DNA from: Nostoc sp. NIES-3756
Lineage (GTDB): Bacteria; Cyanobacteriota; Cyanobacteriia; Cyanobacteriales; Nostocaceae
Length of the DNA stretch: 64,000 bases
Reading direction: 5' to 3'
NCBI RefSeq assembly: GCF_001548375.1
Contig: NZ_AP017295.1
Coordinates: 3,196,501 to 3,260,500 of the forward strand
Positions 152 to 59,500 of this stretch are shown here, piece by piece. A model generated the notes under the pieces. That model ran no database searches and was not told the DNA's origin. It was given only the letters and a program-made list of their open reading frames with translations. How positions within the stretch are numbered: position 1 is the first letter of the stretch; every line of letters starts with the position of its first letter. The position numbers and the translations under genes were made by a program.

Positions 152-491
152 TTGACTTTTCACGGGATCTGAAAAACCCCTCTCCATAGCTTGCTTCCCG
201 TATGGTACCTCTCCCCTCCCAGGAGCTACGGTGTACACACAAGTCTGATAAAGTTGCCGAAGGGCGTTTTGATCCCCCTAAATCCCCCTTAAAAAGGGGG
301 ACTTTGATTATAATTCCCCCTTTTTTAAGGGGGGTTAGGGGGGATCAAACCATATTTTCTACCCAATGTAGAGATGTGTGTACACCGTAGCCTCCCAGGA
401 GAGAGGCTTTAGTTTTCCCCCTTCCCTAGTAGGGAAGGGGGTTAGGGGGTTAGGTTTTGTATTAACTTTTCTACATAACGTGAAAAGTCAA
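152..491. mobile_element. Nested miniature element, copy 1 (outer element)
   Basis: The terminal inverted repeats are TTGACTTTTCACG (152-164) and CGTGAAAAGTCAA (479-491). An 8-bp direct repeat ATACTTTC flanks the element (144-151 and 492-499), consistent with a target-site duplication. It has no coding capacity of its own, although it generates spurious ORFs. It carries a hairpin (CTCTCC..GGAGAG) whose loop is interrupted by a second element at 226-390. It lies between the ATPase and binding-protein genes of the iron importer. Confidence 0.8.
226..390. mobile_element. Inner palindromic element inside copy 1
   Basis: It is bounded by perfect 16-nt inverted repeats CTACGGTGTACACACA (226-241) and TGTGTGTACACCGTAG (375-390). 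The perfect 11-bp direct repeat CCTCCCAGGAG occurs immediately outside (215-225 and 391-401). Inside it lies a third palindrome (271-346) with arms GATCCCCCTAAATCCCCC and its complement. The interior is inverted relative to the inner elements at 10601 and 14056. Confidence 0.8.
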
Positions 492-10522: not shown

Positions 10523-10845
10523 AACGTGAGTTCGATGGTTGAAACACCCCTCTCCATAGCGCAAAGCGCTTCTCGTAGAGTACCTCTCCCCGACGCGGGG
10601 CTACGGTGTACACACATCTTTGTGCTGGATGCAAAATGTGGCTTGATCCCCCTAAATCCCCCTTAAAAAGGGGGGTTAGGGGGGATCTAAACGTTGTGGG
10701 ACTAGGTTATAAGACTTGTGTGTACACCGTAGCCGACGCGGGGAGAGGCTTAAAAACCTAATTTTTCCTTTTACTTAAGATAGGGATTTTTAGCCCCTTC
10801 CCTTGTAGGGAAGGGGTTGGGGTTAGGTTCGATCGAACTCACGTT
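10523..10845. mobile_element. Nested miniature element, copy 2 (outer element)
   Basis: The terminal inverted repeats are AACGTGAGTTCGA (10523-10535) and TCGAACTCACGTT (10833-10845), a subtype different from copies 1 and 3 but with the same internal order. A hairpin-forming CTCTCC..GGAGAG region is interrupted by the inner element at 10601-10732. A C-rich hairpin (CCCCTTCCC..GGGAAGGGG) follows near 10795-10817. No clear flanking duplication could be read. It sits inside the arsenic gene group. Confidence 0.78.
10601..10732. mobile_element. Inner palindromic element inside copy 2
   Basis: Perfect 16-nt inverted repeats CTACGGTGTACACACA (10601-10616) and TGTGTGTACACCGTAG (10717-10732) are flanked by the 11-bp direct repeat CCGACGCGGGG (10590-10600 and 10733-10743). 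The innermost GATCCCCC palindrome lies at 10645-10687. The interior has the same orientation as the inner element at 14056 and the opposite orientation to the one at 226. Confidence 0.8.
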
Positions 10846-13739: not shown

Positions 13740-13983
13740 AACAATTGTTTAACCAGCAATTAAGTTTTCTTTCTTTGGGATAGTAAAAATAATTATTATT
13801 AATAAATAATTACATAAATCGTCCCTTAGTCATAACATTGACAACTGAAAGTCATAAATTTTTTACAAAAACATTCATAATTAATGTAGAGATACTTGGC
13901 AAAAGTATTATATATTCTCAATATAGTAAATTGTATTTTTGATTTGTAGGAATCAAAAAATTATCTTGACAAAGATAGTTGAT

Positions 13984-14302
13984 CTGACTTTTCACGGGAT
14001 CTGGAAAACCCCTCTCCATAGCTTGCTTCCTGTAGGGTACCTCTCCCCTAAAAGGCTACCGTGTACACACAAATCATCTGATCCCCCTAAATCCCCCTTT
14101 CTAAGGGGGACTTGAAGAAATTTCCCCCCTTTCTAAGGGGGGTTAGGGGGGATCGAAACGCCTTTCGGCAACTTTATAAGACTTGTGTGTACACCGCAGC
14201 CCCTAAAAGGAGAGAGGCTTTGATTTCTCCCCCTTCCCTACCAGGGAAGGGGGTTGGGGGTTAGGTCTAACATTAGCTTTTCCTCACAACGTGAAAAGTC
14301 AG
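13984..14302. mobile_element. Nested miniature element, copy 3 (outer element)
   Basis: The terminal inverted repeats are CTGACTTTTCACG (13984-13996) and CGTGAAAAGTCAG (14290-14302). A perfect 10-bp direct repeat GATAGTTGAT flanks it exactly (13974-13983 and 14303-14312), which is strong evidence of transposition with target duplication. The internal order matches copy 1. The inner element occupies 14056-14199. It lies in the intergenic region upstream of the HpnI-like gene. Confidence 0.85.
14056..14199. mobile_element. Inner palindromic element inside copy 3
   Basis: Near-perfect 16-nt inverted repeats (14056-14071 and 14184-14199, each with one change from the consensus) are flanked by the perfect 11-bp direct repeat CCCCTAAAAGG (14045-14055 and 14200-14210). 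The innermost GATCCCCC palindrome lies at 14080-14154. Segment 14155-14183 matches the reverse complement of 242-270 in copy 1, so the inner element is inserted the other way round there. Confidence 0.8.
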
Positions 14303-14394
14303 GATAGTTGATGAGTGCATTGCAAAAATAAGTGATTAACTATGTTGCATAAAAGCAGAGTATAAGTTTAAATTGGCTGGGATAGAGGGGCAAT

Positions 14395-56547: not shown

Positions 56548-59500
56548 CTACTCTCTCGCTGCCAAATATTGATACATGTGCCACCGCAGATTTACATCTG
56601 TTTGCGCTTCTTTAAGTAACTGCTTTGCTACCTCTGAGTTAGTTTTAGTCAACATCTTAAAACGGTTTTCCAAATACATAGATTCTTCCAAGGGTAGCTT
56701 CGGTGTGCGGGAGTCAAGTTGCAGGGGATTTTTACCTTGTTTAACTAAGTCAGGATTGTAGCGATACAGTATCCATCTCCCAGACTCAACAGCAGCTTTT
56801 TGATTCTGCATTGCTGTACTCATGTTAATACCGTGAGCAATGCAATGGCTGTAAGCAATAATTAATGAGGGCCCTTGATAAGCTTCTGCTTCTAAAAAGG
56901 CTTTGAGGGTGTGTTCATCCCGTGCGCCCATAGCTACACATGCAACATAAATATTACCGTAGGTCATCGCTATCAAACCCAAGTCTTTTTTCGCTGTAGG
57001 TTTACCGCCAGCCGCAAACTTAGCAACAGCCGCCTTGGGTGTAGCTTTAGACATTTGCCCACCAGTATTGGAATATACTTCAGTGTCGAGGACAAGAACG
57101 TTGACGTTGCGTCCACTGGCTAGGACATGATCTAGTCCACCATAGCCGATATCATAAGCCCAGCCGTCACCGCCAATAATCCAGACGCTCTTTTTCACTA
57201 GAGAGTCAGCCAGGCTAAGGAGGAGTTCGGCTTCTGGGTTGGATATTGCTTGTAGCTTCTGCTTGAGTAAGGAAATGTAATCCCGTTGTTCCCAAATCTG
57301 GGCTTCATCTTTTTGCTGATTATTCAAGATATCATCTACAAGTTCCCTACCGACATCTGCTGCTAGGTGTTGGAGTAGTTCGGCGGCGAATTGTGCTTGT
57401 TTATCTAAAGATATGCGAAAACCTAAACCAAATTCGGCGTTATCTTCAAATAAACTATTAGACCACGCCGGGCCGCGTCCTTCGGAGTTCTTTGTCCAAG
57501 GTGTAGTGGGTAGATTTCCGCCGTAGATGGAAGAACAACCAGTGGCGTTAGCAACAATCATGCGATCGCCAAACAATTGTGTTGCTAATTTTATATAAGG
57601 TGTCTCTCCACAACCAGCACAAGCCCCAGAAAATTCAAATAATGGTTCCTGCATTTGTTGCTGATTAATATGCGTCAGCCTCAATTCCCTTCTATCAGGG
57701 TTGGGAATACTCAAGAAGAAATCCCAATTTTCCCGTTCTGCTTCACGCAATGGCAACTGCGGCTGCATATTAATTGCTTTGTTGCGCGGTTCGGATTTAT
57801 TTTTTGCTGGGCAGACATCAACGCAGATACCGCAACCTGTACAATCTTCTGCGGCTACTTGGATAGTGAATTTCAACCCCTGCCAATCATGGTCTTTAGC
57901 ATTGGCACTCTTGAAAGTAGCAGGTGCATTCTCTAGTTCTTGTGGTTCATAAACCTTACTCCGAATCACACTATGAGGACACACCATCACACACTTACCA
58001 CACTGAATGCAGACATCCGTATCCCAAACCGGAATTTCTTGGGCGATGTTGCGTTTCTCCCACTTTGCCGTGCCTGTGGGATATGTGCCATCGTCTGGTA
58101 ATGCACTTACAGGTAACTCATCCCCAGCACGGGCGATGATTTTACTTAAGAAATCGGGGAGTGGGGAGGGGGGAGATAAGGGGGAGGGGGGAGGTGGGGA
58201 AGTGGGGGGAGATGGGGGAGAAATTACGAACTCCTGCCTCCTGTCTCCTAACTCATACAAGTTATCCAAAGTGGTATCAACAGCTTTGATATTCATTTGG
58301 ACGATTTGTTCACCTTTTTTGCCGTAAGTTTTGCGGATGGAGTTTTTAATCTCGGTGATGGCTTCTTCTTTCGGTAGTACATTAGATACTGCAAAGAAAC
58401 ATACCTGCATCACTGTATTAATTCGTCCCGCCATTCCTGCATCACGGGCAACTTTATAAGCGTTAATTACATAAACTTTGAGTTGCTTTTCTTGAATTTG
58501 TGCCTGGACTGTACTTGGTAAATGTTCCCAAACTTCATCTTGCTCATAGAGACAATTTAATAATAGAGTTCCCCTAGATTCAATATCTTTTAAAATCGGA
58601 AATTTTTCTAGAAATTCCCATTGATGACAGGCGACAAAGTTAGCTTTGTTAATTAAATAAGTAGAACGAATAGGTTGAGTACCAAAACGTAAGTGAGAAA
58701 CAGTTACCGAACCCGATTTTTTTGAGTCATAAACAAAGTAACCTTGAGCATAATTATCTGTTTCCTCGCCAATGATCTTGATAGAGTTTTTATTTGCCCC
58801 TACAGTTCCATCAGCACCTAAACCATAAAATATAGCTCTAACTATATTGTCTGGTTCAATGTTGAAATTCGGGTCATAATCTAAACTGGTATAGGTAACA
58901 TCATCATTAATGCCAATGGTGAAATGATTTTTAGGTGTAGTAGCTGCCAAATTATCAAATATAGCCTTCACCATCCCCGGCGTAAACTCTTTAGAAGACA
59001 AACCATAGCGACCACCAATTATTTTTGGGGGAGATGAGGAAGATACTAGTGTTTCTCTATCTTCCCCTACTCCCTCACATATAGCCGTCACCACATCCAT
59101 ATATAAAGGTTCACCCGATGCACCTGGTTCTTTTGTCCGGTCTAATACGGCAATGCTACGAGCTGTTTTAGGTAAAGCTGTGATAAATCTTTTGTTATCA
59201 AATGGTCGATATAACCGCACTTTGACTACACCAACTTTTCCCCCTAAGCTGTTGAGATAATCTACAGTTTCATGGACTGTTTCACAACCGGAACCCATGA
59301 GGACAATAACTCTTTCTGCTATCGGGTCGCCATAATATTCAAATAGTTGATATTGTCGCCCTGTAATTTGGGCAAACTCATCCATAATTTTTTGGTTAAT
59401 ATCTGGACAAGCAAAGTAATATGGGTTAACAGTTTCCCTGGCTTGGAAGTAAACATCGGGGTTTTGTGTTGTACCGCGTATCACTGGTTTATCAGGTGTT

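What the first reader, a model, noticed from the sequence alone, without database searches (positions are those of the whole stretch)
10590..10743. Independent insertion of the inner element at the same loop, copy 2, with a different 11-bp duplication
Here the inner element is flanked by CCGACGCGGGG on both sides, whereas copy 1 has CCTCCCAGGAG and copy 3 has CCCCTAAAAGG. Within each copy the two 11-mers match perfectly; between copies they differ. Simple spreading of one composite element would carry the same duplication everywhere, so the inner element seems to have targeted the outer element's hairpin loop several times. That would be strikingly site-selective transposition into a secondary structure.
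Basis: seen in the sequence. Interest (0 to 1): 0.85.

Follow-up and report, generated by a model that had tools for sequence, protein, structure and literature searches.

The report
Jumping DNA that picks palindromes
In this cyanobacterium a short jumping element, moved by a relative of the well-known Tn5 transposase, has landed again and again in the middle of C-rich palindromes, many of them inside other jumping elements; transposons that favour palindromes were known before, but the breadth of targets here is unusual.

Summary
Observation confirmed. At 10590-10743 a 134-bp MITE (ends GCTACGGTGTACACACA) lies between perfect repeats CCGACGCGGGG; copies 1 and 3 carry other 11-mers. Genome-wide I paired 40 copies; 27 have a clean 8-11-bp duplication, 26 distinct. 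Copies 1 and 3 also differ by 2 bp in register within the same hairpin. One composite did spread through its outer ends, and its two copies keep the same inner duplication: a natural control.

The pattern recurs in 14 further genomes of the family (40 clean sites) and in other Tn5-like elements at 30-63% transposase identity. The transposase is Tn5-like (3e-38).

'Into a secondary structure' is only partly supported. Of 139 background intergenic hairpins 21 fit the target consensus, yet 16 of 16 strong-hairpin hits do. A symmetric C-rich pyrimidine/purine sequence is needed; hairpin extrusion is neither shown nor excluded. REP-targeting insertion sequences, including the IS4-family ISRm22, are precedents.

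The parts
10590..10600 (+). Copy 2, left 11-bp target duplication CCGACGCGGGG
10601..10732 (.). Copy 2, inner MITE between the duplications (CTACGG...CCGTAG; 134 bp if the outer G and C are counted)
10733..10743 (+). Copy 2, right 11-bp target duplication CCGACGCGGGG
10523..10845 (.). Copy 2, outer element with inverted ends AACGTGAGTTCGA...TCGAACTCACGTT; its own duplication is weak (TAAAA)
215..225 (+). Copy 1, left duplication CCTCCCAGGAG
226..390 (.). Copy 1, inner MITE (167 bp with outer G and C)
391..401 (+). Copy 1, right duplication CCTCCCAGGAG
152..491 (.). Copy 1, outer MITE, ends TTGACTTTTCACG...CGTGAAAAGTCAA, flanked by the duplication ATACTTTC (144-151 and 492-499)
14045..14055 (+). 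Copy 3, left duplication CCCCTAAAAGG
14056..14199 (.). Copy 3, inner MITE (146 bp with outer G and C)
14200..14210 (+). Copy 3, right duplication CCCCTAAAAGG
13984..14302 (.). Copy 3, outer MITE, ends CTGACTTTTCACG...CGTGAAAAGTCAG, flanked by the duplication GATAGTTGAT (13974-13983 and 14303-14312)

Best explanation
The inner element is a MITE moved by a Tn5-like (IS4-family) transposase whose insertion sequence has the same ends. The enzyme inserts it with a duplication of about 9-11 bp and strongly prefers a two-fold symmetric target: a C-rich pyrimidine arm (C at two and four bases outside the duplication), a short variable centre and the matching purine arm. In this genome nearly all intergenic sites with that symmetry are C-rich palindromes of dispersed repeats: hairpins inside outer MITEs, terminator-like hairpins and the MITE's own hairpin. 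Each nested copy in the window is therefore a separate landing, and the 11-mers differ because the loops of the hairpins differed beforehand. Shown: the duplications, shared ends of MITE and IS, homology to Tn5 transposase, a target consensus learned in other genomes that predicts sites here, uninserted hairpins with variable loops. Inferred: mobilisation in trans (both IS copies found in this genome lack an internal part of the transposase, so an active enzyme was lost or came from elsewhere), and that a symmetric transposase dimer reads the symmetry.
For: 26 of 27 clean duplications distinct, 48 of 56 sites with a stem of 6 or more centred within 2.5 bp of the duplication's centre. Centred stem of 6 or more at 20 of 27 own and 28 of 40 relatives' sites against 4.8% of random positions outside ORFs of 100 aa or more. 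A matrix trained on 40 sites of other genomes scores 15 or more at 20 of 27 own sites and at 43 of 87,520 intergenic background positions. Copies 1 and 3 differ in register by 2 bp. Composite control at 422274 and 6232712. Shared ends of MITE and 1229-bp IS; IS4_3 model and Tn5 homology with D, D, E aligned. Uninterrupted palindrome at an orthologous place in 3 of 5 relatives examined (L228, L229, L232).
Against: 13 of 40 pairs show no clean duplication and 46 of 86 in relatives; I read these as later recombination or change, which is not shown. Some clean sites are not palindromic (4047068, L141; stem 1). Of six clean sites among the named loci, three have a centred stem under 6 (L063, L070, L074). 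No intact transposase was found in this genome. No empty site was found for copy 2 itself.
Confidence: 0.85

Rival explanations
1. The transposase recognises the extruded hairpin or cruciform itself (or a hairpin in single-stranded DNA), and the sequence consensus is secondary.
For: Arms outside the duplication pair better than permuted arms: 0, 1 and 47 of 5000 permutations reach the observed mean for 67, 54 and 17 sites. With equal C/G flanks, inner pairs of 3 or more occur in 32 of 47 hits against 22 of 154 intergenic background sites. All 43 high-scoring intergenic background positions are also hairpins, so the two cannot be parted there.
Against: 114 of 139 intergenic hairpins with stems of 8 or more score below 0 on the consensus, yet 16 of 16 own hits with such stems score 12 or more. 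The pairing signal can come from targets that belong to a few palindromic repeat families. With strictly pyrimidine/purine flanks the contrast shrinks (mean inner pairs 2.82 in 44 hits, 2.19 in 32 background sites). A few hits lack a hairpin.
Confidence: 0.15
2. One composite element spread, and loops changed later, both flanking repeats together, for example by gene conversion.
For: Composite spreading does occur once (422274 and 6232712), and their inner bodies are only 88.7% identical against 98.7% and 95.7% for the outer arms, which suggests exchange between inner copies.
Against: In that pair the inner duplication stayed the same. Elsewhere 26 of 27 duplications are distinct; copies 1 and 3 differ in register too; unrelated targets in other genomes show the same pattern.
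Confidence: 0.02
3. No targeting: insertion is random, and only landings in harmless intergenic hairpins survive.
For: Hairpins are commoner outside ORFs (4.8% of 3,896 random positions) than overall (2.7% of 20,000). I did not count how many copies lie inside genes.
Against: The excess over intergenic positions is about 15-fold for stems of 6 or more (20 of 27 against 4.8%) and far larger for the consensus (20 of 27 against 43 of 87,520), and the axis is centred on the duplication.
Confidence: 0.02

Closest known systems
ISRm22 and other REP-targeting insertion sequences (IS1397, ISKpn1, IS621, ISPpu9/10, ISPa11); PMC1525189, passages seen
   Same: Insertion at the axis of a palindromic repeat; ISRm22 is IS4 family, 10 of 10 copies in REPs in that paper's table.
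   Different: There each element hits one REP family with a nearly fixed sequence and ISRm22 makes 6-bp repeats; here several palindromes that share a symmetric C-rich consensus, 8-12-bp repeats, and MITEs as both guest and host.
Tn5 / IS50
   Same: Transposase homologous over residues 10-439 at 3e-38 with catalytic residues aligned; Tn5 targets are described as palindromic with GC pairs at the ends of the duplication. The 19-base ends resemble the Tn5 ends as I recall them.
   Different: Tn5 uses many sites with a weak preference (recalled); here the preference is strong and reaches at least 5 bases beyond the duplication.
IS1111 in QMITE2 of Coxiella (PMC10969869, passages seen)
   Same: A mobile element using a palindrome inside a MITE as its landing site.
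   Different: Two insertions described there, one MITE, another IS type.

Membership tests
IS4 family, Tn5/IS50-like group | Transposase matches the family model | tested here: met
   NF033590 transpos_IS4_3 2e-113 for the 446-aa protein of L061; the two pieces in this genome match the same model
IS4 family, Tn5/IS50-like group | DDE residues and the YREK signature (signature recalled) | tested here: met
   D, D and E align with Tn5; the string YTWRWRIEQIFATLK read fits Y-2-R-3-E-6-K
IS4 family, Tn5/IS50-like group | Inverted ends of about 19 bp and a duplication near 9 bp | tested here: met
   Ends shared by IS and MITE; duplications 8-12 bp, mostly 9-11; 8-11 bp in 11 of 16 further Tn5-like loci
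IS4 family, Tn5/IS50-like group | Active transposase in this genome | tested here: not met
   Only two copies, both lacking model positions 47-130
MITE of that insertion sequence | Short, no transposase, same ends and duplication as the parent | tested here: met
   134-168-bp copies with the ends of the 1229-bp and 1489-bp IS
Palindrome-targeting insertion sequences | Insertion at the axis of palindromic repeats | tested here: met
   48 of 56 sites with stem 6 or more centred within 2.5 bp
Palindrome-targeting insertion sequences | One conserved REP sequence as target | tested here: not met
   At least three repeat classes and several single targets
Recognition of DNA secondary structure | Hairpins of equal strength are used whatever their sequence | tested here: not met
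   114 of 139 intergenic hairpins are off consensus; 0 of 16 strong-hairpin hits are
Recognition of DNA secondary structure | Extruded hairpin present in the target complex | not testable with these tools
   needs transposition assays

The most novel reading that the evidence does not exclude
A branch of Tn5-like transposases reads two-fold symmetry over some 20-30 bp of target, possibly through an extruded hairpin or cruciform on top of the pyrimidine/purine sequence, so that hairpins of other mobile elements serve as intergenic landing pads and elements nest inside one another.
Probability: 0.2. Interest if true: 0.7.

Novelty: new variant of a known kind. Interest (0 to 1): 0.45.

Why it matters
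Tn5 is widely used in the laboratory because it is nearly random (recalled). Natural relatives with a strong, predictable, symmetric target would show how such an enzyme can be specific, would explain how layered intergenic repeats of these cyanobacteria build up, and would give a ready test of sequence against structure in target choice.

Tried and rejected
Rejected: one composite spreading everywhere (26 of 27 duplications distinct; one pair of loci is a spread composite). Rejected: the 1319-1353-bp copies as the autonomous partner; they are MITE copies holding an ISAs1-family insertion sequence, and the partner with its own matching ends is the 1229-bp IS4-family copy. Rejected: a known RNA family; no Rfam match in the window at gathering score. 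No use: the gapped pattern had a wrong spacing. For copy 2 no empty site: G039 and G079 gave none, and in G280 the flank matches at 94% up to window 10509 and then departs before the outer element. Orientation and body type of the inner copies were dropped as evidence, because inner bodies seem to be exchanged and the differences are small.

Literature: eight searches of an open-access library listed no paper on this element or its target choice, judged by titles and starts of abstracts of the papers listed; one search was useless because its term matched unrelated words. Passages only were seen of PMC1525189, PMC3542288 and PMC10969869; other papers only as listings. Nezha, a cyanobacterial MITE, was seen only as a reference and not compared. 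The name of this IS in ISfinder was not looked up.

Full report
What is there. The window is G000:C1:3196501-3260500 of a 6.99-Mb genome; that it is a Nostoc-like cyanobacterium is my inference from the sequence and from named relatives of the transposase. At 10590-10743 a 134-bp element with ends GCTACGGTGTACACACA lies between two copies of CCGACGCGGGG. Copies 1 and 3 lie between CCTCCCAGGAG and CCCCTAAAAGG. All three sit in a CCTCTC...GAGAGG hairpin inside a larger element. None of 100 shuffles had two matches of any of the three 11-mers.

Genome-wide table. With up to 3 mismatches the 17-base end matches 100 places; the pattern read backwards matches 2. I had 93 ends in hand and paired 40; 13 ends stayed unpaired. 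Of the 40 pairs 27 have a clean duplication of 8-11 bp, 26 of them distinct. By a regular expression 16 of 27 lie between CTCT and AGAG or GGAG, 2 in TTCCC...GGGAA, 3 in CCCC...GGGG hairpins like the MITE's own, and 6 elsewhere. So 'always in the outer loop' does not hold; 'mostly in a palindrome' does.

Independent insertions. Copies 1 and 3 lie in outer elements of one family (outer arms 93.7% and 84.0% identical) with different outer duplications, ATACTTTC and GATAGTTGAT. Their inner duplications differ in sequence and by 2 bp in register: cctctcc[CCTCCCAGGAG]agaggc against cctct[CCCCTAAAAGG]agagaggc. In a 464-kb sample five uninserted CCTCTC hairpins (ten rows, each site read on both strands) carry four different loops; one loop equals the duplication at 56625. 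A natural control: loci 422274 and 6232712 hold one composite that moved by its outer ends; the outer duplications differ (TAAGTTA, TAAATAAA) and the inner one is the same. Their inner bodies are 88.7% identical, the outer arms 98.7% and 95.7%, so inner copies seem to exchange sequence.

Uninterrupted site. For the copy at 2329381 the relative G280 (94% identical there) has the single palindrome CTCCTCCTCTTGTGTGAGGAGGAG at the end of the left flank, with no element; its right flank departs soon after. Of five relatives examined three (L228, L229, L232) show an uninterrupted CTCCTCCTC...GAGGAG palindrome, L232 with a longer loop, and two depart before it. For copy 2 no such site was found.

The mover. 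Two 1229-bp copies with the same ends carry pieces of an IS4-family transposase (103 and 299 aa; model positions 47-130 missing). A 299-aa query found only these two in the genome. Relatives hold longer copies, six of them 1489 bp. The 446-aa protein of L061 matches Tn5 transposase at 3e-38 over residues 10-439, with the catalytic D, D and E (recalled) aligned. The ends run on as ...CACAAGT or ...CACATCT, like the Tn5 outside and mosaic ends as I recall them. In a sample of 99 genomes of the family 72 hold the 16-base end; in a different sample of 194 genomes of the phylum 10 held the transposase at 1e-20, several of those at 30-34% identity only.

How strong is the choice. I fetched 80 loci from 16 other genomes, picked from the listed places for a nearby pair of exact ends; the list was cut short. 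They gave 86 pairs, 40 with a clean duplication, from 14 of the genomes. A centred stem of 6 or more is found at 20 of 27 own and 28 of 40 relatives' sites, against 2.7% of 20,000 random positions and 4.8% of the 3,896 outside ORFs. Of 67 sites 56 have such a stem within 15 bp, and in 48 of these the axis lies within 2.5 bp of the duplication's centre.

Sequence or structure. In the symmetrised set of 40 relatives' sites C stands at the second base outside the duplication in 93% and at the fourth in 82%, with pyrimidines between. A matrix from these 40 scores 15 or more at 20 of 27 own sites and at 43 of 87,520 intergenic positions, neighbouring placements counted apart. All 43 also have stems of 6 or more, so consensus and palindrome cannot be parted there. 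For pairing as such: arms pair better than permuted arms (0, 1 and 47 of 5000 permutations for 67, 54 and 17 sites), and with equal C/G flanks inner pairs of 3 or more occur in 32 of 47 hits against 22 of 154 background sites (Fisher 5e-12), though the hits include other genomes and the background does not; with strictly pyrimidine/purine flanks the means come closer, 2.82 in 44 hits and 2.19 in 32 background sites. Targets from a few palindromic repeat families could give all of this. Against any hairpin serving: of 139 intergenic hairpins with stems of 8 or more 114 score below 0 and 21 score 15 or more, whereas 16 of 16 own hits with such stems score 12 or more. If hairpins were hit regardless of sequence that would have a chance of order 1e-13, by a hand estimate that ignores relatedness. 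A symmetric sequence is needed; extrusion is not shown.

A property of the branch. Other Tn5-like insertion sequences with different ends (CTATCCATTA, CTGCTGTGTACACA, CTAATCCTGTAGGGG and others; 30-63% identity) were examined in 16 loci: 11 gave a duplication, 9 of these with a centred stem of 6 or more, L207 with 5 and L216 with 2. The nine are not independent: L214 and L221 are near-identical, and L208/L215 and L212/L217 look like pairs of the same repeat read on opposite strands. Among 19 named loci scanned (L059-L077) six gave a duplication, three with a stem of 6 or more (L061, L065, L067) and three below (L063, L070, L074). L074, a Saprospiraceae contig at 50% identity, has CTGGC...GCCAG around its duplication. 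I read the preference as old in the group.

Mechanism. Most likely a two-fold symmetric Tn5-like complex captures a symmetric, C-rich pyrimidine/purine target and joins the ends 9-11 bp apart. Palindromic repeats offer the best sites and hairpins inside MITEs multiply them, which yields nested elements. Parallels: palindromic, GC-ended Tn5 targets and ISRm22, IS1397 and IS110-family elements in REPs (passages of PMC1525189), and IS1111 in a MITE's REP (passages of PMC10969869). What seems new is the breadth of palindromes, the prediction across genomes, and MITEs as both guest and host.

Noticed in passing
G000:C1 772880-774198, 1720600-1721951, 4745104-4746456, 4778173-4779502 (L056, L053, L040, L041): Four copies of the inner MITE hold an ISAs1-family insertion sequence whose transposase reads in two overlapping frames (184 and 187 aa), alike in all four; programmed frameshifting is possible. 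In at least some of them it sits in or beside the MITE's own internal hairpin.
   Followed up: partly
window 152-491, 13984-14302 and 10523-10845: The outer elements are MITEs of two end types, CTGACTTTTCACG and AACGTGAGTTCGA, with similar hairpins inside. The first type resembles the ends CTGACTTTTCCCG of a Tn5-like insertion sequence in L216, so guest and host may both depend on Tn5-like enzymes.
   Followed up: partly
G000:C1 422274-422441 and 6232712-6232879: A nested composite that spread as a unit by its outer ends, with inner bodies more different than the outer arms, as if inner copies had been exchanged.
   Followed up: partly
window about 28614 and L182 about 7355: A strong repeated hairpin (AAGTCTGAGCGCC...GGCGCTCAGACTT) that is off the target consensus; no inner element was seen in these two copies.
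   Followed up: no
G000:C1 1710931-1712800 and 4162343-4163015 (L055, L037): Clusters of inner elements nested in one another, including a 235-bp variant and unpaired ends.
   Followed up: no
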